Of a stretch of 64,000 nt of DNA, positions 23,983 to 61,625 are shown piece by piece; the stretch's first letter is position 1; the number at the start of each line of letters is the position of its first letter. Below the pieces are notes generated by a model that ran no database searches, was not told where the DNA came from, and was given only the letters and a program-made list of their open reading frames with translations. The stretch covers positions 33,554,255 through 33,618,254 of the forward strand of contig OX387193.1 in NCBI GenBank assembly GCA_947561395.2. Reading direction: 5' to 3'. The translations under genes and the position numbers were made by a program. Origin of the DNA: Buxus sempervirens (lineage: Eukaryota > Streptophyta > Magnoliopsida > Buxales > Buxaceae).

Positions 23983-24020
23983 GCAATAACAATATTTAAA
24001 GGGTTTAAGATTGTTATTGC
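23983..24020. repeat. 11-bp perfect inverted repeat across the copia-2 LTR/leader junction
   Basis: GCAATAACAAT (23983-23993) and ATTGTTATTGC (24010-24020) are exact reverse complements separated by 16 bases. The second arm spans the inner edge of the right LTR (24012). In sense RNA, the end of U5 could pair with sequence just before the gag start codon. Confidence 0.75.
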
Positions 24021-25474
24021 TAGTGAAGCAAAATTAAAGAAATCAATGAACTGAATTGCAGTTTCACAGTAAATTATATGAGAGACTAAACAATAATATA
24101 GCAAGAAACAGACAATAAAGTTTATTACTGCAGCAGCAGAGGACATAAACAATAATTATGATTAATATGAAGAAAGCAAACAGAGATGAAATAAGTTCTG
24201 TTGAGAAAGGATTGAATTAGTTCATTAGAGATTGACAAGTAGGCAAAATATTAATCAAAGTTTTAAAATTCTAAACAAATAGAACAAACAAACAGAGTAT
24301 ACTTAACGATAGTAACAAAATCCTCTTCTAAAGATAATAAGGTGAGAATAACAACAATAAAAGATGGAATGTGATTAAACAATAAAACCAATGGACATCA
24401 ATTGAAATTCAGCAACAGAATTCTATGCCAATATCAATAACGTAAACAACAATTTAATTGGAGAATGAACATCAATGAAAAAGAAATAAAGAAATAAACC
24501 TAACGATCAATAGATGGAATAATTCTCAAAAATAAACATGGATGAAAAAGAAAACGTATAATAATAAACAAAATCTGAAATCTAAAGACAAATCTCAACG
24601 AAATTGATAAAACTTATCGATATGTCTTTCACCGAGGCAAGGTTGAAAAGCCTTTGAACTTAAACCCTTAACGCCCCCCTATTGGAACAATTCCTCAGTG
24701 CTTAGAGTTATAGCGTTGGGTTCCAACATTCAAGGGTGGTGTAACGCCCCAAATCCGGATATATTCCTCATGAATAATCCAAACTCGAAGTGCTAGTTCT
24801 GTGGGCCCAAACAATAATTATCCATACCAAATTTAATTCCAAATATAATTAAATGAACATCGGAGCATGCTATCAAATTCAATTTCTATTAATAGTCATC
24901 AAATAAATGCGGAACATGGTCAACTAAACCAAAATCAAATAATACTAAGTCTGGATAATAAAGAATGTCAACTAACTAACAACCTCAAATCAAAATAATA
25001 TCTTGCCAATATTAATGAATAACAATCCTATTACAATCCATCTACTTAAAATAAAACTCCTACTCAATATCAAAATAATCGTCTTGATATTGATGATCAG
25101 CACCCTGTGGCTCTACCCCATCAGTATCGTCCTCACCAATAGGATCTGAAAACAAAACATTCAAAACACGGGTCAGATATAAAATCCTAGTAAGTAGCAA
25201 CATGCATGAATAAACAGTCCCATGTTGCTAATAGAAAATACAGTTCATGAAGTATAAAAAATCAATAAAAACCCTACAATCATAACTCAAACAATAAGCA
25301 TATAACCTTTCTTTTCAAAATAAAATCAACAAGTAATCTCCTCATGAGAATTCAAATCAAATACAAGTATATGTGTTTTCACAGGATTTGTAAAATATGA
25401 CCACTTTGAAAAGTTAAGACCTAGTCCAACAAATTTAGTCTAAGAATAAACTGCAATGTATTCGGTCGTATCAT

Positions 25475-25778
25475 CACCCTCATGGTGGAATAAGAGACTT
25501 TAGCCTCATGGTAAAAATGGAAATTGCTGCAGCTCATCCTTTAGGAAAGGCCTCTTCGTCATGGAGGAAATGCACAAAGGAGCTATACTTAATCCTAGCA
25601 AAGATAGACAGACTTCACTACTAGTTAAACTATGGATCCATAACAAGCTAAACCCGCTAATAGCACAATCAAATCGAAATTGGTGGTCCTCATGACCAAC
25701 AAGTGTGTAATGCCCTCATGGCAAGGATACACTCCATCATGGAGAAAATTAATAAGAAGAACCATCTCCCTCATGGAG
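25475..25778. repeat. Hairpin array of solo LTR H, loop CTCAT
   Basis: Perfect units: CACC-CTCAT-GGTG (25475-25487), TGGTC-CTCAT-GACCA (25684-25698), TGCC-CTCAT-GGCA (25711-25723), CTCC-ATCAT-GGAG (25732-25744), CTCC-CTCAT-GGAG (25766-25778). Four different stems around one 5-base loop. They lie on both sides of TATGGATCCATA. Confidence 0.85.
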
Positions 25779-26860
25779 AAAACCAATTTTTCACAAAACT
25801 GTCAAAATCCGTGAAATAGACTCAACTTACCCAAATCTATAGAAAATTATTTCATTACTGTTCCAGAATTTAAAATATCATCAAAACATACTTTACAAGT
25901 GTTACAAACCAACAACTTACAAAACAAATCAAATCTAAGATCAAATTCCCGCTTGGAAAATCAAAACGTGAGTTATTTCAGTAAAACATACCCAAAACCT
26001 TATAAAACTTTCACAAAATCATTCGGCCTCTAAAAACAATTTCTAAATGCTCAATATGTATTTATACATGTGTTGGATTCCTCCAAGAATTATTTTATAT
26101 TTGAAAACTAGGTATTTTTCTCTAAAATCAGAAAAATAGGTTGATTCGCTTAGCAGGTCGCTCAGGCAGTCTAGGTAAGCGGTTGATCAAATTTGAGTAA
26201 TTCATGGTCGCTCAGGCGATCTGTGTAACGCCCCAGATCCATGTTACGTAGAGAAACCGTAACTTATCTCCGAAGGTTAACATAAAACCCAGGATAGCAA
26301 AATCAGAGTGAAGGAAAAACATGAATAAAACAATAACTGGATAAACAGAGTGCACTATAACCCAAGCTCAATAATAAATACAATAACCAAGGCTAACTCA
26401 CATGAACCTCGCATATACCCGCAGGTGTCGACCTTACCAGAATCTGAAAATAAAACAAAACAAACGGTCTGAGATACGAATATCCCAGTAAGTAGCCTAT
26501 GCATGCTCATAAACATTTTAACATTTCTAAAATATGATTCGGATTAAATTATGCATCAATCGACAATAAACGAATAAACAGAATAATTCCACAATAATAA
26601 TATCAATAAACACAAAGTAACTAGAATAAATCAACAACCATAGCAGGACTCATGAAGTAAGACTGTCTTTAACCAGGGTAATCACAATGTCCACTATGCC
26701 ACCTCCAGGCTTAGGTGCGAAGCCGAGTACACGATCATTGTCTTATTGCGGGAGAACCCACCCAGTACAGTGATGGGTTGGCAAGAACTACCCAAACATG
26801 GTCCGAGTACACGATAAAATGAGTGAATAGCCGCAGCCAGCCGAGTACACGATCAGGCCT

Positions 26861-27129
26861 CACTGAGTACACAGTGGAACACGCGTGCGTGGACAGGGAA
26901 TTACAACTAGCAAAGCACAATCCTTTCCACAACCTAGCTCCTACATGGATCCATATAGCGCTATGCCTACTAAGTTCTAAAATCGAAACCAACCATGAAA
27001 ATATAATTAACACAACTCGTTCTAATCTCAACTAGAACATCCCGAGTACACGGGGCCTCTCAGAGTACACAGTAATAAAGCATCTACCCAATACATGGGC
27101 ATCTCAAATTGACTTTCCAAGTACATGGA
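26861..27129. repeat. Hairpin array of element D, loop AGTACA
   Basis: CACTG-AGTACA-CAGTG (26861-26876), CCCG-AGTACA-CGGG (27041-27054), CCCA-ATACA-TGGG (27087-27099), TCCA-AGTACA-TGGA (27116-27129). Weaker AGTACAC units occur from about 26722. The loop is constant and the stems change in a paired way. The right LTR copy of D lacks this part. Confidence 0.8.
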
Positions 27130-28907
27130 GAAAAATATATCACAACCAAACTACCAACCCTTTTTATTTCAACTATTATTTTCCTAAAATTTTGTTCATA
27201 TAACATGCCAGGTTGCATTTCAACTATTAGTTTTCTCTTTACTATTATTAAATTGCCATTATCTTATTTTTAAATTAAGTTACAAATCCAAAAATCCATT
27301 TTTAAACACTTTTTCTTTGAATTTTGATTTTTCTTTCCAAATGTAACTAAAATGTAATTATTTATTTGGGGTTTGAACTTATTTGTTGAATCTAACTAAA
27401 ATCTAAACTAAAAAGTAATTATTTAGGTTTGGTGTACTAATTTATTAATACATTAAACGTTTTACGCTAAAATGTAATTACTTTCTAAAATAATACATCA
27501 GTTTCTATTTACTATTAATGTTTTGCACCAAACTTTAAATATTTTTCAAAACTTCATCTCCTCCGTCACGAACAGCGAACAGTCGGGTTCCGTGAATTTC
27601 AAACGTTTTGCTTGATCACCCCAACAATCCATTTCACTTAAAACCAACTGAAATCTTCTATCATTACATTAAACTGAATATTAAGCTTGATAGTTGAACT
27701 TATACATGAGATTCAGCATCTAGAAAATCAACTCACCTTCTGAAATCGTGAGAAAACAAGAACAGTATAAAAAAAAAAAAAAACTACTTACCTCCTCTTC
27801 TTTTCTTCCCCTTCTCTTCTCTCCCTTCGCCCCTCTTCCTCTTCTCTCCCTTCGCCCCTCCTCTAAACCTTGAAGAATGGGAAAGAAAAATGAGAACCCT
27901 TGGTTCTCAATCAATCTCTGCAACACATTTAAACGAATCCACTTAAATAAACCACATAAACCCACTTAATAAACCATGTGAACCCAACTAAACCCACTTA
28001 AACCAAATCAATTTAAACCCACTTAAATAAACCATATGAACCCAACTAAACCCACTTAAACCAAATCAACTTAAACCCACTTAAACCCAACTAACTAATT
28101 AAACCCACTTAAATAAACCACTTCAATTTATATAATAATTTTAAATGAACCGAACCCAAGCAAGATAATTGATTATCCCATTAACCTTTAAATCAAACCC
28201 AACTAAATAAAATAATTCTTTTCTTCCAATAAAATAATTCAATATAAACCCATTACACCTAAACCAACTAAATCAAATTGATATATTACAACTACATTAC
28301 ATACCCCATTTGTATAAAGTTTAATACCCAAGTATGTGTTTAGCATTGGCTGATGCTTTACACTACTCAAATATGACTATATACATCTGGCTCATCATCC
28401 AATTAAGCAAATAATAGGTTACGTGCTTAATCAAACATCATCAATTTCTTACTTCAAACATGATCATTAACAATTAACACTATATCAGAAAACTCCAAAT
28501 ATTCATTCCACTGCTTTTCTCAAAATCAACTACTTCTCAGGATCCTCAAGTACCTTTTTAAATTGGACTTCAATAATCTTTCTCTAATCATGCAATATCA
28601 ATTTGCTTTTCAGAACTCTCGGTTACCTTTTGAATTGATCTAATTAAAATTTTTTTTTTCTACTCACGAAATTTTAATAATAATAATACCTTACATCACA
28701 ATTAGCAAACCATATCATCACAGATAGATATATCAACAAAGAATAAATAGCTTACCTTTAACAATAATGATTATTTCTATAGCTGTAGAATGAACACTCT
28801 CAACCTAAATTTCCTATTTAGAGGTGCTATCTAGCGAGCACACCACCCCCAAGTCCATCCTAGGGCTTCCTATTTCTATGTCATGTTTCCTTACAAAACT
28901 CTGATAT

Positions 28908-28919
28908 GCTCTGATACCA
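28908..28919 (-). other. Primer-binding site of element D (initiator Met tRNA type)
   Basis: The minus strand reads TGGTATCAGAGC two bases inside the LTR starting at 28922. This is the standard primer site of most plant LTR retrotransposons and fixes the element's orientation. Confidence 0.8.
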
Positions 28920-31800
28920 TCTGTAACGCCCCGGATCCAAGTTACGTAGAGAAACCGTAACTTATCTCCGAAGGTTAACATAAAACCCAGGATAGCAAAA
29001 TCAGAGTGAAGGAAAAACATGAATAAAACAATAACTGGATAAACAGAGTGCACTATAACCCAAGCTCAATAATAAATACAATAACCAAGGCTAACTCACA
29101 TGAACCTCGCATATACCCGCAGGTGTCGACCTTACCAGAATCTGAAAACAAAACAAAACAAACGGTCTGAGATACGAATATCCCAGTAAGTAGCCTATGC
29201 ATGCTCATAAACATTTTAAAATTTCTAAAATATGATTCGGATTAAATTATGCATCAATCGACAATAAACGAATAAACAGAATAATTCCACAATAATAATA
29301 TCAATAAACACAAAGTAACTAGAATAAATCAACAACCATAGCAGGACTCATGAAGTAAGACTGTCTTTAACCAGGGTAATCAAAATGTCCACTATGCCAC
29401 CTCCAAGCTTAGGTGCGAAGCCGAGTACACGATCATTGTCTTATTGCGGGAGAACCAAAACAAGAACAGTATAAAAAAAAAAAAAAACTACTTACCTCCT
29501 CTTCTTTTCTTCCCCTTCTCTTCTCTCCCTTCGCCCCTCTTCCTCTTCTCTCCCTTCGCCCCTCCTCTAAACCTTGAAGAATGGGAAAGAAAAATGAGAA
29601 CCCTTGGTTCTCAATCAATCTCTGCAACACATTTAAACGAATCCACTTAAATAAACCACATAAACCCACTTAATAAACCATGTGAACCCAACTAAACCCA
29701 CTTAAACCAAATCAATTTAAACCCACTTAAATAAACCATATGAACCCAACTAAACCCACTTAAACCAAATCAACTTAAACCCACTTAAACCCAACTAACT
29801 AATTAAACCCACTTAAATAAACCACTTCAATTTATATAATAATTTTAAATGAACTGAACCCAAGCAAGATAATTGATTATCCCATTAACCTTTAAATCAA
29901 ACCCAACTAAATAAAATAATTCTTTTCTTCCAATAAAATAATTCAATATAAACCCATTACACCTAAACCAACTAAATCAAACTGTAACACTTAAGTTGTC
30001 TCACTTGAATGAACCAAACCACAAAAACCCAACCTTATCAATTTAACCAGTTTACTCAAAGCAAACCCACTCAATTAAGCCTTTTCTTTAAAATTGGATT
30101 AAGTAATCTCATTAAATCCTTTAATCCCCTAATTACTCTTAATTAAAAATTTCTTGAAAATTCAGGGTTTTACAATCTGTGACAGGCGGCTTAACAATAT
30201 GAAAATTTAACGATTGCTCAGCAGGTCGCTCAGGTGATCAGACGAGCTATCTTAACAAGGATAGCGCTCATCAAGGGCACCTAGGCGATGTGGTAGGCGA
30301 TTGTTTAGTTTCACAAGTTACGGCAATTTTTCATAAATCCGACTTCTTCATAAATCTTCAAAAATAACTTTCTATCAACAACAATCAGTTCCAACCTTTC
30401 CAAAATCAATATAAGTATATTATAAAACATCCCAACAAATCTAACAACAATTTTATACGATCAAGTTAAGGTTTTTTAATCGAAATCTAAAGTAATTAGA
30501 AAACTGTACGTGAAGAACAAGATGTGTTTTTCCTATAGTTAAACCTTAACCAAATACGTCCAAATCATCCTCAACTCATTCTTCAAACATCCAGAAATCC
30601 AGAAACATGATATTTGTCGTCTAATCAATAAAACGTGCAGATTTTCGCCAAGAGAAGGGTTGCTACTTACCTTTTGTCGCAAACAGATCCAACAAAACTT
30701 CAAGCTTTGATCTCCCCCTAAACTCCACAGCAAAAACTCATTGAAAAGTTCCTTCTTTTCCTTCAGCTGTCCAAGGCAAAAATAGGGTTTCTTCTCTCCT
30801 AGTCGTCCAAGGCAAAATAATCGAATTTTTAGATTTTCTCCAATATATCCTCATGATCACTTCTGTTCTTATTAGAAGTTCCTTATTTTTAGAAACTCTC
30901 CAAAGCAACCTCTCATAAACACACTCATACCCATTCTAATAATTTATTTTATTTTCTTTTAATAACATGATCCAATACATGCCACTACATCATGCTTTAT
31001 ACACTTGACCAATAGAATTAAAGATATTTACATAATATTTTCCTTACCTCATATCTCATGATCCAACCGTTGGATCGACTTCAATTTCTGAATTTCCATC
31101 CTCCACATGATCACCTATTAGATTCAAGCCTCTGATTAGCAATTACTCCCAATAATTACATATTAGAAATTTAATAATTAATTCTGAAAAATTTAGGGTA
31201 TTGCAGGTGGAGAGGACTGGTAGATCGCACAAAAGTACCAGCCACAAAAATGAACCTTTGAGTGTCACTCAGATTTAACAAAGAAGACGAAGAAGATTGA
31301 AAGAACCGTTTGAAAGTGGAGAAAGAAACGTAGACACCAGATCTTTTGTTATATACGAAATCAGAAATCGGATATCTCTCAACAAAACCAAAATACTCAA
31401 ATCAAAAGAAGAAACAGTAGAAAAAGAGAGAAGATATGAGCAGCAATAGAGATAAACACAAGGGTTTTTGTCTCTTCGTTCTTAGATCTTTGACCTTAAT
31501 GTATTCAACAAAACCCTAAAACCCTCTTCTTAAGAAGACGAACCCAACAAACTGAATCCGGTTTATTCAGTTCAGTTATAACAAATAAAAGTAACGTTAA
31601 ATAACGTTATAAAAAGTTAACGTTAAATAACGTTTTAAAAAAAATATTTAAAATAAAGTCTTGATTTTGAGACTTTTATAAAATACAACATTATCTGCAT
31701 AGCCAATGAAGTATCCACTGACTATCCTAGGGTCAAGCTTCTTCTCATGTGTATTGTACACCCTGACCTGTACTGGACAACCCCATATGTGTACATGTGA

Positions 31801-36540: not shown

Positions 36541-38570
36541 TGTAACGCCCCGAACCCGGGTCAGTGCAAACCGGCACCCGACTTGAACCCGGTTCACTAC
36601 TGTAACAACCCGAATTCAGTTCAACAACCAAATCCGAGGTGTTACTGGCTCATATCAAATATATATCAAGAATATACCAAACTAAAGAATTAAATAATCC
36701 ATTCACTTTATTATACTATCAGAGTGCGGAAACAAGTATGTGCAGAAGTGTAATCTAAAATCCTCAAATAAACATTAAAGTTAATCATCAATCATTAATA
36801 TCAAAGTCTGGTAAAATAAAATGGTTACTATCTCTCTCATCTCTCTAGTACATCAAATCCAAATGAATAATAGTCTATCAAATATTGTAAAATCCCTAAA
36901 TTTCGGAAATATTAAAATTTATATTTTAGTGATTAACTTAAAGATAATTAGTGAATTTTTAAGGGAAGAGAGATTATTGATTTTAATCGGAAAGGTTGCT
37001 TGAGCCGGACGGGCTATTTAAGGATTATAAAGGTATGAGGAAAATTTCGGGAATTTTATTAACTAAATTATTTACTGGTATAGGAAATGTGGTAGTGGGG
37101 CATTGCAGCAAATCAAGAGTTAAAATGGTTTGAGTGGCAAGTATAAAACGAGGGGAAAGAGTTGCTGATTTGGTCGAATTCTTGAACGAACTAATTTGGA
37201 TCTCAAAGGAAAGAGAAGAGCAGCAGCTTGCAGTGGAGCTGAGTTGGAGGAAATTCCAGTATGTGGAGAGCTCGAGTTGTATGAGTAATCTCGGTTAGTA
37301 AGAGGTGAAGCAGCCTTGTTGTTTGAAATCAAAGTTCAGATCAGAATTGGAGTTCTCATCCAATCTGAGTGCAAAAATTCAGGTTAGGTCATCTTCACTA
37401 AGATCAATCAGTAGAATGTTAATCTGAATTGAATGAAGGATCAGATCGAATGGAATCTGATCTAGTGTTGGTGAAAATCTTCAGATCGGTGTTGAGCGTG
37501 GGGAATTAGAAGTGCAAATTCAGAAGGCTTGCTGTACAAATTGAAGGCTCAGCAAATCAAATGCAGTAGCTAGAGGTAAGTATCATATTATAACTTCTGT
37601 TTAGTCGTTTAAAATCAAGAAATGGAGTTTGTCTTAAACTGGAGATTTATAGTTCTGAGTATACAGAATTGGCATTCTACACTTGATTAATAGCTAATTT
37701 TTGATTGAATGAAATTCTGGAAATGTGGTTATGAATGAGCATGCGAAATTGGATTCCCTGTTCTTGTTTAGTCATGGTCGATTGGACACGGATGGTTTCT
37801 AAAATTGATTTCCAGCAAGAATTAAAGATAGGATTGCTGAGTTAGCAAGTGTATTAAACTATATTGGAAATGATGAACAGGAGAACACATGGATTAGTTG
37901 ATTAGGGAATTAGCATATTATTGATGTAGCAGAATTTGTAAACGAATTTCTATGAGTGGCTGATATTTGTAATATGGTCTGAATGACTTAAATAAACTCA
38001 AAGTGAGTAGCCGAATCCTATTGTAACGCCCCGGATCCGTGTTCTTCATTAAAGATATAACACGTCTCCTAGGGGTTAGTTAAGGATCTCAATAATGGTG
38101 ATCGCTGGAAAATCACCGCATTTTATATCACATCAGAGTGCACAAATAAACATTCTTATCCAGGCAAGTTATGACCTCATCAATTACATCAAATGGGCCC
38201 AAATTTACTACCTTATTACAATCCTCACAAATTCAACTTATCAAGTTTGAGGCCAAACAACCTGCTGGACTAAGGTCGATAGTAATAATCCTCCTCCCTA
38301 TATGTATTAGCCGGATCTACCCCCGTAGGCACCTCACCACGAATATCTGAAAAACAAAACAACAATGAGGGAATGAGATACGAATATCTCAGCGAGTAAC
38401 ACATGCATGCAGAAATAGTTAACACAGTTATAAGACATTCTTCGACAAATAACCAACGATAATAACAACGTAATTCCGATAACGACACAAAACCAGGTCA
38501 ATGTCATGCATATGGTTATATTGATTAATTTACATGCCAAGTAGACACTCCACACCTCCATGTACACAGT

Positions 38571-38688
38571 TCCGGCCTACTCAGGGTATCGGATACTCTG
38601 AAATGACGGCCTACTCAGGGTATCCTCATCCAATGCCGGCCTACTCCGGGTATCGGCACTGACAACCAGGCCTACTCAGGGTATCTGG
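38571..38688. repeat. Hairpin array of element C left LTR, constant 15-base loop
   Basis: Four units share the loop GCCTACTC(A/C)GGGTAT. The stems differ and pair: TCCG/CGGA (38571-38593), ATGA/TCAT (38604-38630; in the right LTR it extends to ATGACG/CGTCAT), TGCCG/CGGCA (38634-38658), CCAG/CTGG (38666-38688). The right LTR has the same array at 45716-45833. Confidence 0.85.
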
Positions 38689-38840
38689 CTGCTCTACACT
38701 AGTCGTGCAACACACAAGGCCATGCAATTACACTAATAAACACATACCATCACATTACTAAGCTTAACAAGGATCCAGGGGAAGCAAAACCCAAACCGAT
38801 AAATAACCTTTTAAAACTCTGCATTAGTACACAGCACCCG

Positions 38841-38950
38841 TTGTTCCAACCAGAACATCCACTCACACAAGTGTTCCAACCAGAACATCAACTCACACAA
38901 GTGTTCCAATCAGAACATCAACTCACACAAGTGTTCCAACCAGAACATCC
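38841..38950. repeat. 30-bp tandem repeat of element C left LTR (four units)
   Basis: Each unit holds GTTC-CAACCA-GAAC, itself a small hairpin, followed by ATC(C/A)ACTCACACAAGT. Units begin at 38843, 38873, 38903 and 38933. The partner LTR has three (45988, 46018, 46048), consistent with slippage since insertion. Confidence 0.9.
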
Positions 38951-40299
38951 AATCTCCACCAGAAATCAAGTAAATAATCTTTGCAACATAATTTAAAACT
39001 TACCATCAAACAGGGTTTAATAAATCTCAATCAAGTACCATATAGTGTATAATTCAAGAGAACTAAAATAGAACCCCAGTGTTTTGATATCCTGAACATC
39101 ACCTAATTATTTCCCAATATCTACTTCATAAGCTTTTACGGAATCCAAGGACCTATCTTCAATGTTCTCATAAGCAAATTTTTATCTCTAAGGTTGTAAA
39201 CAAATACTTTGGTACGTGGTCGAAGACCTTCTAGCATCCAAAAACCCCTTGGTTTTACTAAATTTTGAGATTCAGCAAGGAAATGAACTAGGCGCTCACT
39301 TCCTGAAGTGGGCGCTAAGTGAGCGCTGAGTGAGCGGTGCTCATCTCATCAAAATTTGGGTTGGCGCTCACTCGAGGATGAGTGGGCGTGAGCTCGGTGC
39401 CAAATGGGCGCGAGAAAGGCGCGAGGTAGGCGCAAGAGTTTTAAGTGGGCGCGAGCTGAGCGCTGAGTGGGCGCGAGCTCGGCGCCAGGTCAAATTTTCT
39501 GGGCGCCTACTTCCCGAAGTGGGCGCTAAGTGAGCGGTGACCCACTGCGTTTTTCAAGTCTCTGTTAATCCCAAAACTCCAACTCTGGCTGGATTTTTCC
39601 GGTCTGTAACTACTTCTCTAGTCTCCCAATACCCCCAGAACACATTCAAACCTATTTTGGATTTAATCTAACATGTTTTCAAGTTATCCCCAAATTATTG
39701 TACCAAAACCCGTCGGACTGTCTTTGCCCAGAAATACAGAAATACAGAGAACAATTCATTCAATAACCATGCATTCATTCAAACCAAATCCACGAATAAA
39801 CTAAATCAGGTTTTAAAACGGTGCCACTCACCTTTCTATGCTCCTAAGTCTTTGTAAGCGAGCAACCCAGAAAACCCTAAACTCTTTCGGCTGCCGGCTT
39901 GCTCTGGTCGAACAGGGGTTCTGCTCGCGAGGGAAGAAGCTCTTCCGAACTTCTTCAAGTTCAACTAAACTTACCGGCAGTAAGTTTTCCTCATCTCGCC
40001 TCTCCCACAGCACTTCTCCTGCTCCTCTCGAAGAGCCCTAAACGAAAACCGCAGCTGCAACCCTCTCAATCTACTATACGCGTATTCGGAACAAAACAAA
40101 AACCTAATTCTTAAACTATTTATACCTTCCGCAATACGCTTGGACTGCTCGACGAACCCTTGTATTTCTGATATAGTGCGAGCGCGACCACCAAAAAAAA
40201 CCCCTACATCCACACCTTATTAGTAGATATTTATTGTTGAAATAAATTAATAATAATGTTTTTTTTCCCATAAAACCTGGAAATAAACGGGGTTTTACA

Positions 40300-40313
40300 T
40301 TCTTCCCCCCTAC
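40300..40313 (-). other. Polypurine tract of element C
   Basis: The minus strand reads GTAGGGGGGAAGAA immediately before the 3' LTR. This purine run primes plus-strand DNA synthesis in LTR elements. Confidence 0.85.
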
Positions 40314-40338
40314 AAAAATTTCGTCCTCGAAATTTACC

Positions 40339-43300
40339 TCAAGAAGAATTGAATAACTCTGGATACTTCTTTCTCATCTCTTCCTCGCTTTCCCAAGTGC
40401 ATTCTTCAGTGGAATGGTTTTGCCACAACACTTTGACCAAAGGTATCACTTTGGTGCGAAGGATCTGCTCACGCCGATCCAAAATCTGCACTGGCTTCTC
40501 TTCATACGTCAAATCCTCCCGAATCGCTAAGGATTCGGAATCTATCACATGACTAGGATCAGATATGTACTTGCGTAGCATGGAAATGTGAAACACGTCA
40601 TGCACTCCTTCCAAGTGACCCAGTAAAGCCAACCGATATGCTGCTGGGTTAATCTCCTTCACTATCTCATATGGACCAATAAACCGAGGTGATAATTTCC
40701 CTTTCTTCCCAAATCTCCTAATTCCTTTGGATGGAGAAACCTTCAAAAAGACCATATCTCCCACTTCGAATCTCAATTCTCGACGTCTAGTATCTGCATA
40801 ACTCTTCTGACGGCTTTGTGCAGTTAATATCCGTTGTCTGATGAGTTTTAATTTTTCCATACTGTCTTGGATAATTTCTGGCCCAAAATACTGTTTCTCC
40901 CCAATCTCAACCCAACATACTGGTGATCTGCACATTCTACCATACAAAGCCTCATACGGTGCCATCTGGATGCTAGCTTGATAGCTATTATTGTAGGCGA
41001 ACTCCACCAGATGCAAATAAGCTACCACCCCAATCCAAAACACAACACCTTAACATGTCCTCCAAGGTCTGAATAGTCCTCTCGGACTGACCATCAGTCT
41101 GCGGATGGAAACTGGTACTGAAACTCAACTTGGTACCCATGGCCTCCTGGAAACACTGCCAAAAGTGAGATGTGAACCGGGAATCCCTATCTGACACAAT
41201 AGACACTGGGACCCCATGCAACCGGACTATCTCTCGCGTATATAAATCAACCAGTGATGCTAGATTTTGAGTAGTCGAATAAGGCAAGAAGTGAGCGGAT
41301 TTGGTCAGCCTATCGACAATTACCCATATACCATTTTGATTCTTGGCTGTAGGTGGTAGTCCATTCACAAAATCCATTGTGATATGCTCCCATTTCCACT
41401 CAGGCACTGGTAACGGTTTCATCAATCCTGGAGGTCTACAATGTTCTGCTTTTACTTGCTGACATATGAGACACTTAGCTACAAATCCCGCAATGTCTTT
41501 CTTCATACCCGACCACCAATATACCCCCTTCAAGTTCCGATACATCTTAGTGCCACCCGGGTGAACTGCATATCTAGACCTGTGACTCTCATCAAGTATT
41601 ACTCCTTTGATCTCATCATCATTCGGAACACAAATACGACCCTTAAATTTTAGTAGTCCATCCCTGATCTCAAAGTCTCTAGCTGCTTCATCACCCTTTG
41701 ATACTAACTCCCTGGTATGTGTCAACTCCGCATCGGTCAACTGCCTATCACGAATTTGCTGTATCAACTCAGGCTCCACCTGAACTCGTGACAAGATCAA
41801 CCCATGACCGTGGGTGCTAAACTCTCCTGGCCAGTCTACCACTGTATCAACTAGAGTGCACTGGCTAACCATAAAACTAGCTAATGTGGCCACCTCCTCC
41901 TGAGAAACACTCCTATGGCTCAGAGCATCTGCCACCACATTTGCCTTACTAGGGTGGTAATGAAGAGTAAAATCATAATCCTTTAGGAGGTCCATCCATC
42001 TCCTTTGTCTCATATTCAACTCCCTTTGAGAAAATATATACCTCAAGCTCTTGTGATTTGAGAATATCTCAAATGAAGCTCCCATCAAATAGTGCCTCCA
42101 TAACTTGAGTGCAAACATGATCGTTGCCAACTCCAGATCATGGGTAGGATAATTCTTCTCATGGGGACGTAGTAACCTCGAAGCATACGCTACTGCTCGC
42201 TTTTGCTGTATCAAAACACAGCCCAATCCTACTCATGAAGCATCACAATAAATAGAAAATCCTTCACTCACTGATGGAACAATCAAAACTGGAGTTGTAG
42301 ACAGTTTACTTTTCAACTCCTGAAAGCTGGTCTCACACTTCTCACTCCATTCAAACTTCACTGCCTTTTTAGTGAGATTGGATAAAGGTGCTGCTACTCG
42401 TGAGAAATTTTCTATGAATCTCCTATAATATCCAGCCATTCCCAAGAAACTCTGAATCTCGGTCACAGATGAAGGTCTACGCCACTCTGCAACAGCCTGC
42501 ACTTTAGCTGGATCCACTGCTATACCATTCCCAGAAATCACGTGCCCCAAGAAACTCACCTCTCTCAACCAGAACTGACACTTACTGAATTTTGCGTACA
42601 GTCGGTGCTCTCTCAATGTCTGTAATACTGTCTTGAGGTGCTGCATGTGATCTTCTCTACTCTGGGAATACACCAAAATGTCGTCAATAAACACGACCAC
42701 GAAACTGTCCAGGTAAGGATGAAATACACGATTCATAAGATTCATGAAGACAGCCGGGGCATTAGTCAGCCCAAATGGCATGACCAGAAACTCGTAATGC
42801 CCATACCGTGTGCGGTAAGCCGTCTTCTCTATGTCATCAGGCACTACTCTCAACTGATGGTATCCCGATCTGAGGTCAATCTTAGAAAACCATGACGCTC
42901 CCCTCAACTGGTCGAACAAATCGTCAATCCGAGGCAACGGATACTTATTCTTAATGGTGACCTGGTTTAACTGGCAGTAATCTATACACATCCGCATCGA
43001 CCCGTCCTTCTTTTGGACAAACAGGACTGGTGCACCCCACGGTGACACACTGGGCCTAATAAAACCCTTTGCTTCCAGTTCATCTAATTGCTTCTTCATC
43101 TCTTGGTTCTCAGGTTGTGACATTCGGTATGGAGGTTTGGACACCGGTGCCGTACCAGGTAAGAGTCGTATACTGAACTCGACCTCTCGAGATGGCGGTA
43201 AGCCCGGCAAGTCCTCAGGAAAAATGTCCTCAAACTCTAATGCCACAGGCACACTAGAGAGACTAGGTGCCCCAGACTCTGCCTCCTCAACTTCAATGGA

Positions 43301-45013
43301 AGCAACCAAACTGATTCGTGCCCTTAGTCCATCACACCGGAAACAGTGCATAGGCTGATCGGGTTGGCATACCATAACAGTACCCCGATGGCAATCTATA
43401 CTCACATGATGCCTAAACAACCAATCAATGCCCAAAATCACATCGAACTCCCCAAAGCTCAACTCCACTAAGTCCCCTGGCAACTCTAAGGAACCTAGTC
43501 GGATTATGCAGTCTCTAAACACAGTCTGTACTCTAGTTGTCTCCCCCAATGGTGTGTGTACAAGCAACTCAGACTCAAGTGTGGCAGGAATCAAACCAAT
43601 ACGAAATGCACAAGGTGGGGCAATAAAAGATCTAGAGGCACCCGAATCAAACAAACATATAGCCGATCTACCATGTATAAAAAGAATACCTCCGACAAGC
43701 TGGGGTGCGCTCGGCTCCTCCTCCCGAGCCTCCTCTGTAAGTCCCCTCTCTGCCTCCTCCTCATGTGCTGCCACAGCATACACTCTCTTCTGCTGCTGCT
43801 GTGGGCGCATAGGTGGTGCGTGCTGCCTCTGGGGTGCCTGCCTACCCTGATATCCACTGCTACTCTGACCCTGTGATCTCGGCGGGGCTGGTAACGCTGG
43901 TGTCGGCCTGGGATACTGGAATCGTGGAGCATTATCTGACCGGTTGTCCCCTGGAACTGTGTTGACGGTCCTAAGCAGCTGATACGAGGCCGGGTGTGGG
44001 CATCCTGCCACTCGGTGACCGTGCTGACCACATTTGAAACAGGTTCCGGGTGGTGCTACACAGGGACCCGGAATATGAAATCTGCCACAGCTGATACAGC
44101 CTCCATAACTCCTCCTATCCCTCTCTCCTTAAGACCCAAAACCTCCAGTATCAAGCCTCGGCCTTTTGTCCCTGTCAGGAATCCTCCGTGGCTTTGGAAC
44201 ACTAGGCTGCACTCTCCCTCTGCTCTGCTCTGCTCCTGAATCGCGGATCTCCCTCTCGACTCGTAGCGCTCTCCCAACTAGGTCAGAATACCTAGTGCAC
44301 ATCAATACTGAGACCATACGCCTGATATCAGCCCTCAACTCTTTCTCGAAGTGCTGAGTGTGTCTCTGCTCGTCGTGTACGATGTGGTGCGCAAACCGGG
44401 AAAGTACCGCAAATCGAGCCTCATACTGCGCCACAGTCGAAGAACCCTGAGAGATGTCCATGAACTCTCTCTCCTTCTGCAGCCTCACCTCAGCAGAGAA
44501 ATACTGCTCGTAGAAAACCTGCCTAAACTGGTCCCATGTCATCTGGATCCCCTTTGCCGTCCGCCTCCTCAAAGACTGCCACCAATGTTGGGCCTCGCCC
44601 TCTAGCGTGAAAGTGGCTAATCGCACCTTCCTGTCCTCTGGGCAGTCCATGGTATCGAACATACGCTCAACCCTGGCCACCCAGCTCTCTGCCTCTAAGG
44701 GATCTGGAGCTCCATGGAAGGGTGGGGAGGTCAACTTCTGAAACTGATCAATGTCCCTCAAGGACAACTCATCTCCTCTTCGTTGCTGTTCCACATCTGC
44801 TCCATGACCATTCCTGTGGCCATTCCCGTTCCCATTTCCCGTGTGACTCATCCTCTCCTCCCTTTCCAAGGCAAGGAGGTTGGCAAGTGAGCCAACAGCA
44901 GCCCAGATATCCTCAACTGCAGGCGGAGCTCCTCGTGGAGGTGCAGGGGGCTGCTCCTGCGGTATATCCTCCTCCATAGCTCTTGGGCGTTGGCCTCGGC
45001 CTCTGCCAGCCAT
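40339..45013 (-). pseudogene. Element C gag-pol remains
   Basis: Minus-strand order: gag from the ATG at 45013 (MAGRGRGQRPRAMEED) with the capsid-type domain about 44250-44700. CCHC knuckle [15 protein letters not shown] near 44000-44045. Protease [12 protein letters not shown] near 43630-43665. Reverse transcriptase about 42650-43150, with [15 protein letters not shown] and FIDDILVYS (catalytic DD). RNase H from FSIYCDAS, about 41950-42260. Integrase with the HPGGTKMYRNLKG zinc finger near 41560 and MDFVNGLP downstream. C-terminal chromodomain, VLWQNHSTEECTWE and EEEMRKKYPELF, near 40350-40450. The chromodomain and domain order place it in the Tekay/Del chromoviruses, which direct integration toward marked chromatin. 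The coding frame is broken about three times. Confidence 0.9.
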
Positions 45014-45150
45014 GATTTCCTGTAACCAACAAACACCACATTAGTTAGGAACTCTCTTCTATACCTCATGGTTCTATCTAGCGTACACACAATATTTCCC
45101 CGGGTTTCCTAAGGTCGGACTACCTAGGAATCTCTAATTCCAGCTTTAAG

Positions 45151-45162
45151 GCTCTGATACCA
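45151..45162 (-). other. Primer-binding site of element C (initiator Met tRNA type)
   Basis: The minus strand reads TGGTATCAGAGC, separated from the 5' LTR end (45167) by a few bases. Same type as in D and copia-3. Confidence 0.9.
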
Positions 45163-45166
45163 TCTC

Positions 45167-47415
45167 TGTAATGCCCCGGATCCGTGTTCTTCATTAAAGA
45201 TATAACACGTCTCCTAGGGGTTAGTTAAGGATCTCAATAATGGTGATCGCTGGAAAATCACCGCATTTTATATCACATCAGAGTGCACAAATAAACATTC
45301 TTATCCAGGCAAGTTATGACCTCATCAATTACATCAAATGGGCCCAAATTTACTACCTTATTACAATCCTCACAAATTCAACTTATCAAGTTTGAGGCCA
45401 AACAACCTGCTGGACTAAGGTCGATAGTAATAATCCTCCTCCCTATATGTATCAGCCGGATCTACCCCCGTAGGCACCTCACCACGAATATCTGAAAAAC
45501 AAAACAACAACGAGGGAATGAGATACGAATATCTCAGTGAGTGACACATGCATGCAGAAATAGTTAACACAGTTATAAGACATGCTTCGACAAATAACCA
45601 ACGATAATAACAACGTAATTCCGATAACGACACAAAACCAGGTCAATGTCATGCATATGGTTACATTGATTAATTTACATGCCAAGTAGACACTCCACAC
45701 CTCCATGTACACAGTTCCGGCCTACTCAGGGTATCGGATACTCTGAAATGACGGCCTACTCAGGGTATCGTCATCCAATGCCGGCCTACTCCGGGTATCG
45801 GCACTGACAACCAGGCCTACTCAGGGTATCTGGTTGCTCTACACTAGTCGTGGCAACACACAAGGCCATGCAATTATACCAATAAACACATACAATCACA
45901 TTACTAAGCTTAACAAGGATCCAGGGGAAGCTAAACCCAAACCGATAAATAACCTTTTAAAACTCTGCATTAGTACACAGCACCCGTTGTTCCAACCAGA
46001 ACATCCACTCACACAAGTGTTCCAACCAGAACATCAACTCACACAAGTGTTCCAACCAGAACATCCAATCTCCACCAGAAATCAAGTAAATAATCTTTGC
46101 AACATAATTTAAAACTTACCATCAAACAGGTTTTAATAAATCTCAATCAAGTACCATATAGTGTATAATTCAAGAGAACTAAAATAGAGCCCCAGTGTTT
46201 TGATATCCCGAACATCACCTAATTATTTCCCAATATCTACTTCATAAGCTTTTACGGAATCCAAGGACCTATCTTCAATGTTCTCATAAGCAAATTTTTA
46301 TCTCTAAGGTTGTAAACAAATACTTTGGTATGTGGTCGAAGACCTTCTAGCATCCAAAAACCCCTTGGTTTTACTAAATTTTGAGATTCAGCAAGGAAAT
46401 GAACTAGGCGCTCACTTCCTGAAGTGGGCGCTAAGTGAGCACTGAGTGAGCGGTGCTCATCTCATCAAAATTTGGGTTGGCGCTCACTCGAGGATGAGTG
46501 GGCGCGAGCTCGGTGCCAAATGGGCGCGAGAAAGGCGCGAGGTAGGAGCAAGAGTTTTAAGTGGGCACGAGCTGAGCACTGAGTGGGCGCGAGCTCGGCG
46601 CCAGGTCAAATTTTCTGGGCGCCTACTTCCCGAAGTGGGCGCTAAGTGAGCGGTGACCCACTACGTTTTTCAAGTCTCTGTTAATCCCAAAACTCCAACT
46701 CTGGCTGGATTTTTCCGGTCTGTAACTACTTCTCTAGTCTCCCAATACCCCCAGAACACATTCAAACCTATTTTGGATTTAATCTAACATGTTTTCAAGT
46801 TATCCCCAAATTATTGTACCAAAACCCGTCGGACTGTCTTTGCCCAGAAATACAGAAATACAGAGAACAATTCATTCAATAACCATGCATTCATTCAAAC
46901 CAAATCCACGAATAAACTAAATCAGGTTTTAAAACGGTGCCACTCACCTTTCTATGCTCCTAAGTCTTTGTAAGCGAGCAACCCAGAAAACCCTAAACTC
47001 TTTCGGCCGCCAGCTTGCTCTGGTCGAACAGGGGTTCTGCTCGCGAGGGAAGAAGCTCTTCCGAACTTCTTCAAGTTCAACTAAACTTACCGGCAGTAAG
47101 TTTTCCTCATCTCGCCTCTCCCACAGCACTTCTCCTGCTCCTCTCGAAGAGCCCTAAACGAAAACCGCAGCTGCAACCCTCTCAATCTACTATACGCGTA
47201 TTCGGAGCAAAACAAAAACCTAATTCTTAAACTATTTATACCTTCCGCAATACGCTTGGACTGCTCGATGAACCCTTGTATTTCTGATATAGTGCGAGCG
47301 CGACCACTAAAAAAAACCCCTACATCCACACCTTATTAGTAGATATTTATTGTTGAAACAAATTAATAATAATGTTTTTTTTCCCATAAAACCTGGAAAT
47401 AAACGGGGTTTTACA
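45167..47415 (-). repeat. Element C right LTR (5' LTR in sense)
   Basis: Near-identical partner of 38022-40299. It carries three rather than four of the 30-bp units (about 45988-46060), the hairpin array 45716-45833, the palindrome 45520-45535 and the GC-rich tract about 46405-46655. It would drive transcription leftward through the element. Confidence 0.92.
47233..47240 (-). promoter_or_regulatory. TATA box of element C 5' LTR
   Basis: The minus strand reads TATAAATA about 175 bp into the LTR (U3 is short). It is followed after some 250 bp of leader by the donor-like site, and matches 40117-40124 in the other LTR. Confidence 0.6.
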
Positions 47416-49875: not shown

Positions 49876-51671
49876 GCACATAAGCTGGGAGGTGGCATAG
49901 TGAGCTTGGTTTTACACTAGTTAAAGGCGATTTATTTCATGAGTCCAATACGGACTTACCTCCAATGAGTGCACAGTATTGGTTTTCTGTTATACGGTGA
50001 TTGTTAATATATTTCTTTATTAGTATATGTTGTTTTCGGATTATTCGGGTTAACCGGTAAGCTTGGTGATTGTTATTAATGCACGGTTATTCCAGGAGCA
50101 TGTTTGAGGACTGTTGTTAAATGTTTTATGCATGCATTTGATACTTGCTGAGATATTCGTATCTCATTCCGTTTGTTTTGTTTTGTTTTCAGATCTTGGT
50201 GAGGGCGATATTCATGGGGTTGAGCCAGCTGCGGTTTACCCTGAGTATAGGGGAGAGGACTATTTTGTCGAGTGACCTTTGAGATACATTTTAGCTGTTA
50301 TTTTCATTTGAGATAGTGAGTAGCTTTTGAATTGTAATTCTTTCAATTCATGGTGATTGGGTGATCGGGATATTTTAGCGAACTCTGATATTTTTGTTGG
50401 TAATAATAAATTGAATGTCATGTTTCTTACACTCTGATATAGATCCTGCGGTTTGTTTATCTAACCATCGGGTACGAGTTACGGTTCCATTACGTAACCC
50501 GGATCCGGGGCGTTACAAATATGACTAAGTCTAAACAATCCTCCACCTCAAACAAGATCCGGATAAAAGTAATCCTCCGGTGAATACTCGCTACCTCTCC
50601 CTAGAAATCACTATGATCCCCCTCTCGCGTATCAGCTGAAAAATGAAATAAAATCAGGGTGAGATACGAATATCCCAGTAGGTAACACATGCATGATTAA
50701 ACAGTTAATATAAGTAAAGTAACAATTCATGCACGATTAAGCAATATCGACTAATTAGGCTCGTATAATCATTCGTATCATTCATGAATACAAAATAGTA
50801 TGATAAACAGTTTTAGAGATGAATTTCAGCAAGTTCTATTATAAGAGTCCAATATCAAAATCAATAACATAATTCATACTTTGCTAGGATGCACTAAACA
50901 GTCACATCCGATCAATATCTCAATCACATGCCTCCAGCATGTATACAATAATAATAACAAGCGTTTGTAATTTCAGTGTCATTGTAGGACTCACAAAGAT
51001 AGATAAACCTTTTGAGATGATTCTCAACCAATCGCTATACCACCGTGCGGCTTAGGAGCAATGCTACTAATGATACTCAAGTCCCATGCAGTGCAGCTTA
51101 GACAAAAGCCGTAGTCACTGACTTATTACATACGTACCCATCAGAGTTGGCATGTACCACCAGCATGCAGCACTAGAATCAATACATGGAGATGGTTGCT
51201 TATCCACATGTACAGGGAATCACCAGCGGCTCACCAGGGTGTCACTCCAGACATAGGACCTTCCCAAACAAACTAACTTGCAAAGTGTAAGTGTGAAAAC
51301 TCACACTCCTTTTATGGCAAATGTTTGACAAATTATGTCTTCTAATAATCTTCAAGATGTGCAGAATAAATAATGAAAATTCAGTAAATTTAGTAAAGAA
51401 GAAGAAGACGATGCTGCCACACAGCTATCACGCCGCTGGTAGCTCAAGGAAATGAAAGATTGTCTAAATAAAGCATCTCTTGTAAAGGCACTTGCGAGGA
51501 ACAACGCCGCTGCCACTCCGCTGGCAGCGCATAAGTGAAACAGTACTTTGAAGGTAAGGCACGTGCACTAGCATCGTAAGGTGACGCCGACACACCGCTG
51601 GTAGCACAGAGCGAGATTGAAGATTCTAATGATCAGCTGTGCACATGCCGCGTTCCCTCCCGCTAGCAGCG

Positions 51672-51780
51672 CGCTGGCAGCGCGCTCTTAACTGAGTCAA
51701 CTTGTTCTGAGCGGGACTTGAGTTCGCCAGCGCGCTCTTAACTGAGTCAACTTGTTCTGAGCGGGACTTGAGTTCGCTTC
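51672..51780 (+). repeat. 50-bp tandem duplication in the copia-3 left LTR
   Basis: The segment beginning CAGCGCGCTCTTAACTGAG and ending CTTGAGTTCG is present twice in a row here and once in the right LTR (near 60830). It must have arisen after insertion or been lost from one copy. Confidence 0.9.
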
Positions 51781-52105
51781 CAGCCGTCTACCCCGATCGC
51801 ACCACGATGCCACCAGCGCTCGACGCGATCTGAGTTTTTTTCTTTAAATAGACGTGCTGTAATTTTTAGTTATGACTTTTTTCTTTGGATCAATTTGATT
51901 TTGGATCTTGAGGTGTTCGAGATTCGATCAATTCTTCTTTAGAGAGTCGGTGATCGAGTGAGGGGGAGATCTGAGATAGATCGCCTGGAATTGAAGTTTG
52001 AGGATTCTTCTTCAATTCGGAACTTCACCTGATCGTGTGATCGCCTGGATTGGTGATCGACTTTGTTAGATGCATAGGTGGATTCCTATTGCATTGGATC
52101 GTCTC

Positions 52106-52310
52106 AGTGGACTCTGAGGTGATTGTTGCGATCTGGATTGATTGTGTTCTGCAGCTTGTGGATTCAAGCTGTGTTGCAGTTCGTGGATTCGAACTGTGGA
52201 TCACTGTTGAGTGATTGTTTGCGATCTGGATTGATCGTGTTGTGCAGCTTGTGGATTCAAGCTGTGTTGCAGTTCGTGGATTCGAGCTGTGGATTGCTGT
52301 TGAGTGAGTT
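52106..52310 (+). repeat. Hairpins with loop GTGGATTC in the copia-3 LTR
   Basis: CTCA-GTGGACTC-TGAG near 52103, AGCTT-GTGGATTC-AAGCT near 52155, CAGTTC-GTGGATTC-GAACTG near 52178. The second and third recur in the second 93-bp copy (near 52248 and 52270, the last with one wobble). The loop is constant and the stems differ. The right LTR has the same set. Confidence 0.75.
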
Positions 52311-52525
52311 CAATTGTAAAGGTTAAGTGTGTGCTCCTTTGTAATTGTTTTTTTTCATTCAATAGTGGAAATTCGAAGGGTTAGTCGCCTCATAGAGACT
52401 CGAGGTTTTTCCTGGATCTGGATTCAGGTTTCCTCCTATAATTCTCTGTGTGTATGTTTCCGCACTGTTAAGTTCTTAATTGTTGTAGATCGTGGACCTG
52501 TAGAGTAGTCCTCTACTCTTTCATT

Positions 52526-52538
52526 TGGTATCAGAGCC
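52526..52538 (+). other. Primer-binding site of copia-3 (initiator Met tRNA type)
   Basis: TGGTATCAGAGCC lies two bases inside the 5' LTR end (52523). It fixes plus-strand orientation. Confidence 0.92.
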
Positions 52539-52583
52539 TATTCACTTTGAATTGCTATACAAAGTGTGATCTAGATCTATAGC

Positions 52584-60069: not shown

Positions 60070-60422
60070 TGATGCTGCTGGGATTGATGATTCTGTTGGG
60101 TTGTTGCTGCTTGCTGCTTGTTGTTATTTTTTTTCTTCTTTATGTTGTTTGTTATGTTGTTTTTAGTAGTTTCTGAAAGTTGGTTTGTGGGGGAGTTTTC
60201 TGTGGGTTTGTGGGGGAAGTTTTCTGTTGGTTGGCTGTATGTATTTGGTTGGATGTATGTATATATGTTGGAACAATGTATATCTTTCTTGAATGAATGA
60301 AATTCTGGATTCTCCCAAATCATTGTGTCTCCCTTATCAGTGTAGTTTTAAATTCTTAAATGGAAATCAATATTAACTGAGTTTGATATTAAACACTGTT
60401 TTAAGGTTGTTGTCAGGCATTT
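60070..60422 (+). other. Copia-3 3' untranslated spacer
   Basis: T- and G-rich (many GTTG / TTGTGGGGGA words) with no coding. It leads to the purine tract. Confidence 0.6.
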
Positions 60423-60436: not shown

Positions 60437-61625
60437 TGTAAGTGTGAAAACTCACACTCCTTTTATGGCAAATGTTTGAAAAATTATATCTTCTAATAAT
60501 CTTCAAGATGTGTAGAATAAATAATGAAAATTCAGTGAATTTAGTAAAGAAGAAGAAGACGATGCTGCCACACAGCTATCATGCCGCTGGTAGCTCAAGG
60601 AAATGAAAGATTGTCTAAATAAAGCATCTCTTGTAAAGGCACTTGCGAGGAACAACGCCGCTGCCACTCCGCTGGCAGCGCATAAGTGAAACAGTGCTTT
60701 GAAGGTAAGGCACGTGCACTAGCATCGTAAGGTGACGCCGACACACCACTGGTAGCACAGAGCGAGATTGAAGATTCTAATGATCAGCTGTGCACATGCC
60801 GCGTTCCCTCCCACTAGCAGCGCGCTGGCAGCGCGCTCTTAACTGAGTCAACTTGTTCTGAGCGGGACTTGAGTTCGCTTCCAGCCGTCTACCCCGATCG
60901 CACCACGATGCCACCAGCGCTCGACGCGATCTGAGTTTTTTTCTTTAAATAGACGTGCTGTAATTTTTAGTTATGACTTTTTTCTTTGGATCAATTTGAT
61001 TTTGGATCTTGAGGTGTTCGAGATTCGATCAATTCTTCTTTAGAGAGTCGGTGATCGAGTGAGGGGGAGATCTGAGATAGATCGCCTGGAATTGAAGTTT
61101 GAGGATTCTTCTTCAATTCGGAACTTCACCTGATCGTGTGATCGCCTGGATTGGTGATCGACTTTGTTAGATGCATAGGTGGATTCCTACTGCATTGGAT
61201 CGTCTCAGTGGACTCTGAGGTGATTGTTGCGATCTGGATTGATCGTGTTCTGCAGCTTGTGGATTCAAGCTGTGTTGCAGTTCATGGATTCGAACTGTGG
61301 ATCACTGTTGAGTGATTGTTTGCGATCTGGATTGATCGTGTTGTGCAGCTTGTGGATTCAAGCTGTGTTGCAGTTTGTGGATTCGAGCTGTGGATTGCTG
61401 TTGAGTGAGTTCAATTGTAAAGGTTAAGTGTGTGCTCCTTTGTAATTGTTTTTTTTTCATTCAATAGTGGAAATTCGAAGGGTTAGTCGCCTCATATAGA
61501 CTCGAGGTTTTTCCTGGATCTGGATTCAGGTTTCCTCGTATAATTCTCTGTGTGTATGTTTCCGCACTGTTAAGTTCTTAATTGTTGTAGATCGTGGACC
61601 TATACAGTAGTCCTCTACTCTTTCA
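60437..61625 (+). repeat. Copia-3 right (3') LTR
   Basis: Near-identical partner of the left LTR, with single rather than duplicated GCGCTCTTAACTGAGTC unit. It ends at the CAAAG duplication. Confidence 0.9.

What the first reader, a model, noticed from the sequence alone, without database searches (positions are those of the whole stretch)
38571..38688. Hairpins with one fixed loop and compensating stems in the LTRs of chromovirus C
Seen directly: four units in each LTR keep GCCTACTC(A/C)GGGTAT while the flanking arms are TCCG/CGGA, ATGA/TCAT, TGCCG/CGGCA and CCAG/CTGG. In the right LTR the second unit pairs over six bases (ATGACG/CGTCAT). Different stems that still pair point to selection on a folded form (RNA or single-stranded DNA) with a recognised loop. 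Inference: binding sites for a protein such as Gag, or an RNA-folding scaffold. I know of no published description.
Basis: partly seen in the sequence, partly recalled or inferred. Interest (0 to 1): 0.85.

Follow-up and report, generated by a model that had tools for sequence, protein, structure and literature searches.

The report
Fixed-loop hairpin arrays in plant LTRs
Several jumping genes in this plant-like genome carry rows of small hairpins that keep the same loop while their stems change but still pair, which looks like a label by which their RNA is recognised, possibly for packaging.

Summary
In detail: each LTR of chromovirus C holds four copies of one 15-nt loop with different, self-complementary arms. 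A blind scan finds the same design with other loops in three more LTRs of the window: solo LTR G (NTCAT), short element F (AGTACA) and copia element D (TGGAYT). Five groups of one exact loop have at least 3 stems, against a mean of 0.05 (maximum 1) in 200 local shuffles. Matched arms pair better than arms swapped between units. The C loop occurs 4,097 times in the host genome, 0 in the reversed control. Young C copies decay without compensation (0 of 30 changes); subfamilies show a few double changes that keep pairing. The arrays lie downstream of TATA-like boxes; in C, F and G inside a predicted leader intron. My reading: selected RNA hairpins with family-specific loops, most likely read by the element's own Gag and kept only in unspliced genomic RNA, like a retroviral packaging signal. 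Selection on folding is well supported; strand, ligand and splicing are inferred.

The parts
38571..38593 (-). C left LTR, hairpin 1: TCCG / loop / CGGA (4 bp); letters here and below as on the + strand, element sense is minus
38603..38629 (-). C left LTR, hairpin 2: ATGACG / loop / CCTCAT (one pair broken)
38631..38661 (-). C left LTR, hairpin 3: CAATGCCG / loop / CGGCACTG (5 bp, 8 with one A.C on +, i.e. G.U in sense RNA)
38663..38691 (-). C left LTR, hairpin 4: CAACCAG / loop / CTGGCTG (4 bp, 7 with one A.C)
45716..45836 (-). C right LTR array, the same four hairpins, stems 4, 6, 5 and 7 bp
45167..47415 (-). C 5' LTR (sense is the minus strand); 3' LTR is 38022-40299; a TGGTATCAGAGC-type primer-binding site follows (motif recalled, read by eye)
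47232..47240 (-). TATA-like box TATAAATAG of C (5' LTR)
45492..46947 (-). predicted leader intron of C: donor AAG|GTGAGT at 46947, acceptor TTTTTCAG ending at 45492 (top-scoring donor and acceptor of the LTR); holds the array
   Evidence: consensus prediction only
45520..45535 (-). hairpin GAGATA-TTCG-TATCTC starting about 43 nt before the end of the predicted acceptor; same or near-same in F, H and I
25475..25779 (-). array of solo LTR G: loop NTCAT, stems CACC/GGTG, GGTC/GACC, TGCC/GGCA, CTCC/GGAG (a further unit at 25337)
26720..27130 (-). array of element F, long LTR: loop AGTACA, stems CACTG/CAGTG, CCCG/CGGG, TCCA/TGGA; 5 of 8 loops pair over at most 2 bp
52038..52290 (+). array in 5' LTR of copia element D: loop TGGAYT, e.g. 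CAGCTTG/CAAGCTG, CAGTTCG/CGAACTG, CGATC/GATCG, ATAGG/CCTAT, CTCAG/CTGAG
61139..61390 (+). same array in 3' LTR of D
51843..51851 (+). TATA-like box of D (TTTAAATAG), upstream of its array

Best explanation
The arrays are sets of short RNA hairpins in the transcribed 5' leader (R-U5) of LTR retrotransposons. The loop is what a ligand reads. The stem only has to hold the loop open, so it drifts freely as long as it pairs. The loop differs between families, so the ligand is probably encoded by the element: its Gag/nucleocapsid. In C, F and G the array sits between a predicted splice donor and a predicted acceptor, so it would remain only in unspliced genomic RNA and mark that RNA for Gag and packaging, as the retroviral packaging region does. 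Shown here: fixed loops, varying self-complementary stems, four LTR families, position relative to TATA-like boxes and splice-site matches. Inferred: RNA of sense polarity, start site, splicing, Gag as ligand, packaging. I put about 0.85 on selection for a folded form and about 0.4 on the packaging mechanism.
For: Arm permutation: C right 22 vs 10.5 (1 of 24), D left 37 vs 10.4 (1 of 20,000), G 36 vs 9.2 (0 of 20,000), F 19 vs 7.1 (2 of 5,040). Scan: 5 groups with at least 3 stems vs mean 0.05 in 200 shuffles. D's 271-nt array folds at z -6.2 as sense RNA; the minimum-energy fold shows 8 of the 10 TGGAYT loops in it as hairpin loops. In 7 stem-bearing D units (of 11 loops; 2 repeats and 2 unpaired ones left out) the non-Watson-Crick cells are 11 G.T, 0 A.C, 4 other; arms swapped between units give 8.8, 3.5 and 27.0, and D's LTR pair shows no C/T excess (5 C/T, 7 A/G): this leans to sense RNA. 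The best-scoring acceptor lies at the corresponding place in C, F, G, H, L039 and L042, with a strong donor upstream in C, F, G and L039. Double changes between subfamilies. Five G copies: 31 of 68 NTCAT loops pair over at least 4 bp on the array strand, 0 of 12 on the other (units are homologous between copies).
Against: Folding does not single out the sense strand: C sense z -1.1, antisense -2.4; G sense 0.63; F sense 0.24; D antisense -9.2. In local folding the C stems form with mean probability only 0.34 in sense RNA (0.19-0.54 per unit), and strands are similar in all four families. The number of G.T cells in D is not itself unusual (1,125 of 5,000 swaps reach it), and F and G show no such lean. 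In C the G.U-like excess in stems is matched by the same excess in loops, so it is a mutation bias there. Private changes are never compensated (0 of 30), and single-sided variants of unit 3 exist (L062, L064). 5 of 8 F loops pair poorly. The predicted second leader exon of C has 9 ATGs in 478 nt, so splicing would not clear the way to gag. No good donor in H or L042. C's 294-aa gag piece showed no zinc knuckle. Family I has the acceptor module but no clear array. No RNA data.
Confidence: 0.4

Rival explanations
1. Splicing or export control: the hairpins bind a host or element protein that keeps the leader intron in a share of the transcripts, or helps export of unspliced RNA. Same RNA-level selection, different step.
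For: Array 224-344 nt (C), 276-686 nt (F) and 329-633 nt (G) upstream of the predicted acceptor. A TTCG-loop hairpin starts about 42 nt before the end of the acceptor in C, F, H and I.
Against: Family-specific loops fit a host factor poorly. D has an array without a convincing intron around it.
Confidence: 0.22
2. DNA is what matters: hairpins in single-stranded minus-strand DNA during reverse transcription, or dyad sites for a DNA-binding protein.
For: R-U5 is copied first into single-stranded DNA (established for LTR elements, recalled). Antisense folds are as stable as sense.
Against: A duplex dyad site would conserve the arms; here the arms vary and the loop is fixed. The absence of A.C next to 11 G.T cells in D leans to sense RNA.
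Confidence: 0.15
3. No selection on stems: template switching within hairpins during reverse transcription keeps rewriting one arm from the other, so stems stay complementary by mutation alone.
For: Known for quasi-palindromes in general (recalled). A double change arose within a small divergence: L039 unit 3 has A-T where three relatives at 96% identity have C-G.
Against: It should also make the loop ends symmetrical, yet loops stay fixed and asymmetric. G.T pairs stand in D stems. The changes seen in young copies only break pairs.
Confidence: 0.13
4. Ordinary minisatellite in an LTR whose pairing is chance.
For: The C array is scored as a tandem repeat of period 30.
Against: 200 shuffles and arm permutations in four LTR families.
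Confidence: 0.03

Closest known systems
Sirevirus repeated palindromic motifs (RM; Bousios et al. 2010, PMC2829016, passages and section 9 read)
   Same: Many short hairpin-capable units in plant LTRs, 8-32 per element; D looks like an element of that lineage.
   Different: RM have a conserved palindromic sequence (CGG-CCG core in all but one) and lie upstream of the TATA box. Here the loop is conserved, the arms vary, and the arrays lie downstream of a TATA-like box. C is a Ty3-type element, and F and G resemble C at their ends.
Retroviral packaging region (Psi) stem-loops (recalled, no call)
   Same: Several hairpins with exposed, protein-read loops in the 5' leader, downstream of a splice donor so that only unspliced RNA keeps them.
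   Different: No Gag binding shown here. One loop is repeated several times. The array lies within the LTR, not between LTR and gag.
Degenerate packaging signals of satellite tobacco necrosis virus (PMC6475782, abstract and passages seen)
   Same: Short stem-loops with a shared loop motif (AxxA) in variable structures.
   Different: A capsid virus with dispersed signals. [quoted passage not shown]
BARE RNA pools (PMC3735527, passages seen)
   Same: A plant LTR retrotransposon separates spliced and packaged RNAs.
   Different: Its intron is in gag, and no hairpin array is described in the passages seen.

Membership tests
Chromovirus (Ty3/gypsy with chromodomain), element C | gag, protease, RT, RNase H, integrase and chromodomain | tested here: met
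   Pfam Retrotrans_gag, RVP_2, RVT_1, RT_RNaseH, Integrase_H2C2, rve (just below its cut-off) and Chromo over four separate ORFs
Sirevirus (copia), element D | copia-type gag with zinc knuckle, RVT_2, extra ORF after pol | tested here: inconclusive
   Retrotran_gag_2, zf-CCHC, RVT_2 and an extra ORF matching Transposase_32; no lineage tree built
Sirevirus palindromic RM | conserved palindromic arms | tested here: not met
   arms differ between units, loop fixed
Sirevirus palindromic RM | upstream of the TATA box | tested here: not met
   C and D arrays lie downstream of their TATA-like boxes
Retroviral-type packaging signal | located in the 5' leader of the genomic RNA | tested here: inconclusive
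   TATA-like box upstream of the array; start site not mapped
Retroviral-type packaging signal | downstream of a splice donor, absent from spliced RNA | tested here: inconclusive
   predicted donor and acceptor flank the arrays of C, F and G, not clearly that of D; no RNA data
Retroviral-type packaging signal | bound by Gag and needed for packaging | not testable with these tools
   needs binding and packaging assays
Known RNA families (Rfam 15) | match at gathering score | tested here: not met
   0 matches in the window

The most novel reading that the evidence does not exclude
Plant LTR retrotransposons of both superfamilies carry a modular RNA address: an array of hairpins with one family-specific loop on freely drifting stems, in the Ty3 type placed inside a leader intron that lies within the LTR itself, so that only unspliced genomic RNA displays it to the element's own Gag.
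Probability: 0.28. Interest if true: 0.87.

Novelty: new variant of a known kind. Interest (0 to 1): 0.72.

Why it matters
How plant LTR retrotransposons choose their own RNA for packaging is, to my knowledge, largely unknown. An array with a fixed, family-specific loop gives a defined candidate signal and a simple prediction: recognition should follow the loop and not the stem sequence. It also gives a signature (one loop, many compensating stems) with which other genomes can be scanned, and it raises the question whether LTR-internal leader introns are common in these elements.

Tried and rejected
Strand by wobble in C: A.C 48 vs G.T 10 in stems looked like sense-RNA selection, but loops of the same copies show the same G-to-A excess (15 vs 5), so I dropped it. 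Strand by folding energy or pairing probability: undecided. Private covariation among young copies: none. Spread over the genome: 0 groups in 17 sampled 10-kb stretches (one half masked) versus 6 in the window by the same fuzzy criteria; 4 of the 6 were printed and one of these looks like chance; ten shuffle rounds of all sequences gave 2 groups in all. So the arrays belong to particular LTRs and are not a general genome feature. Family I: no group in one LTR copy and one weak group in the other (two copies looked at). Family H: units with AGCTACA-like loops seen by eye only; the plus-strand pattern found 2 loops, neither paired, so H is not counted. Seven exact loop matches in IMG/VR are single and have at most one pair in their arms. 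No relative of C's pol piece in viral contigs. F's 994-bp LTR difference does not match the predicted intron. ATG depletion as support for splicing: predicted exon 1 has 1 ATG in 263 nt, intron 31 in 1,456, exon 2 has 9 in 478 (start site assumed about 30 nt after the TATA-like box), so not supportive overall. The genome-wide count of paired versus unpaired variants at unit 3 did not complete, nor was the search with the second array of L011.

Full report
Observation. Element C lies on the minus strand at 38022-47415, with LTRs at 38022-40299 and 45167-47415 (2,217 of 2,246 aligned bases identical). Each LTR has four copies of GCCTACTC(A/C)GGGTAT. The arms of the four units differ and pair with each other. 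In the right LTR the perfect stems are 4, 6, 5 and 7 bp. In the left LTR two units each have one broken pair.

More than chance. If the right arms are dealt out anew among the four units of the right LTR, total pairing falls from 22 to a mean of 10.5, and no other of the 24 arrangements does as well. A blind scan for one exact loop on at least three different perfect stems finds 5 groups in the window; 200 local dinucleotide shuffles give a mean of 0.05 and at most 1. The loop occurs 1,998 + 2,099 times in the genome and never in the reversed control.

Not one family but four. The scan led to three further LTRs: solo LTR G (24740-31205, interrupted by F) with loop NTCAT; element F (about 26224-29989) with loop AGTACA; and copia element D (51286-61625, target duplication CAAAG) with loop TGGAYT. 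I took every occurrence of each loop in its LTR, paired or not. Matched arms beat swapped arms: G 36 vs 9.2 (17 loops, 0 of 20,000), D left LTR 37 vs 10.4 (10 distinct of 11, 1 of 20,000), D right LTR 24 vs 7.5 (9 distinct of 11, 4 of 20,000), F 19 vs 7.1 (7 distinct of 8, 2 of 5,040; by pairs within 5 positions weaker, 140 of 5,040). The loops of D, F and G were chosen from the scan, so the shuffle test carries the main weight. D counts twice among the five groups because both of its LTRs qualify. D is a copia element by Pfam, with an extra ORF after pol. C is a chromovirus. F and G have no coding genes that I examined; they resemble C at their ends and share a module of about 100 bp near the acceptor, so C, F and G are distant relatives with different loops, while D is unrelated to them.

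Copies elsewhere. In 70 distinct units of C-type arrays (window, L008-L037 and the sampled stretches; units whose arms fitted none of the four were dropped), 379 of 439 stem cells are Watson-Crick, 48 A.C, 10 G.T and 2 other. Of G-C pairs that changed on one side, 0 of 30 had a changed partner: recent copies decay without repair. Between subfamilies there are double changes that keep pairing. Unit 1 reads ATATCCG/CGGATAT in an upstream second array (5 of 6 loci: L011, L060, L062, L063, L064; L061 decayed), whereas L066 and L067 have T-A as fifth pair (TTCCG/CGGAA; the first pair is broken in L067), and most main arrays have lost that pair. Unit 3 reads CAATGCAG/CTGCATTG in L039, but CAATGCCG/CGGCATTG in L065-L067, which are 96% alike to it. 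Seven further places match the L039 query at a reported 100% identity, two over all 201 bases and five over bases 3-201, so that form was multiplied. Single-sided variants of unit 3 also exist (L062, L064). In five copies of G, 31 of 68 NTCAT loops on the array strand pair over at least 4 bp and 0 of 12 on the other strand. The 40 scored D copies, of 1,663 candidates, are all at least 98% alike, too young to show covariation.

Place in the element. In the sense strand of C there is a TATA-like box at 47240, a strong splice-donor match at 46947, the array at 45836-45716, a hairpin GAGATA-TTCG-TATCTC at 45535, a strong acceptor match at 45492, and a primer-binding site just after the LTR. The best-scoring acceptor of the LTR falls at the corresponding place in C, F, G and H, and in L039 and L042, relatives at 70-75% identity; strong donors lie upstream in C, F, G and L039, not in H or L042. 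The arrays of C, F and G therefore lie in a predicted leader intron, 190-690 nt before its acceptor. In D the array lies 195-447 nt downstream of a TATA-like box and before the primer-binding site; no convincing intron surrounds it. These are consensus matches scored with matrices I wrote from recall, not transcript data.

Which strand. D's array folds far better than shuffles on both strands (z -6.2 sense, -9.2 antisense). In seven D units the departures from Watson-Crick pairs are 11 G.T, 0 A.C and 4 other, against 8.8, 3.5 and 27.0 for swapped arms, and D's LTR pair shows no excess of C/T over A/G changes (5 vs 7). This leans to sense RNA, but the G.T number alone is reached by 1,125 of 5,000 swaps, and F and G show no such lean. 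In C the similar excess is explained by a mutation bias seen in loops as well. Local folding gives C stems a mean probability of only 0.34 in sense RNA. So sense RNA is favoured in D and open elsewhere.

Mechanism. A fixed loop on stems that only need to pair is what one expects of a loop read by a ligand. Loops differ between families, which points to an element-encoded ligand, Gag. A place in the leader, and in C, F and G inside a predicted intron, would confine the signal to unspliced genomic RNA. This is the logic of the retroviral packaging region (recalled knowledge). Gag binding, splicing and packaging are inference. A splicing or export role uses the same facts and is the closest rival.

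Known work. Sirevirus LTRs have repeated palindromes with conserved arms upstream of the TATA box (PMC2829016, passages and section 9 read), the reverse of the present design. In maize, copia LTRs hold most of the predicted structure of their elements while Ty3 elements lack an obvious peak (PMC10760457, passages seen). A 2025 review says that plant LTR retrotransposons generally lack introns, with exceptions (PMC12786077, passages seen). In 8 answered searches I saw no description of fixed-loop, variable-stem arrays; most subscription papers are not held, and Bousios et al. 2016 could not be read.

Verdict. Observation confirmed and extended. Interpretation partly supported. The structural claim is strong; the function is a testable proposal.

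Noticed in passing
51286-61625 inside 50539-62854: Copia element D is inserted in an LTR of another family (I; other copies at 4574-7002 and 11404-13814), target duplication CAAAG.
   Followed up: partly
26224-29989 inside 24740-31205 inside a repeat of 15176-16380: Three-level nest: short element F in solo LTR G (target duplication GGTGG) in a second copy (24015-24739 plus 31207-31690) of the repeat 15176-16380.
   Followed up: partly
26759-27752 versus 29456/29457: The two LTRs of F differ by a 994-bp stretch that holds 7 of the 8 AGTACA loops; its edges do not match the predicted intron.
   Followed up: partly
45520-45535, 38375-38390, 50150-50165, 26471-26486, 5074-5091: A hairpin with a TTCG loop (GAGATA-TTCG-TATCTC or near it) starts about 42 nt before the end of the predicted acceptor in LTR families C, H, F and I.
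   Followed up: partly
38842-38949 and 45988-46067: A 30-bp tandem repeat with TGTTC-CAACCA-GAACA (fixed arms) next to the C array; 3.6 copies in one LTR and 2.7 in the other.
   Followed up: no
46400-46660 and the matching part of the left LTR: C LTR has several inverted GCGCCCACTT / AAGTGGGCGC-type units in its leader, seen by eye.
   Followed up: no
51505-51680: D has GC-rich palindromic CGCTGGCAGCG-type repeats upstream of its TATA-like box, resembling the published Sirevirus motifs, seen by eye.
   Followed up: no
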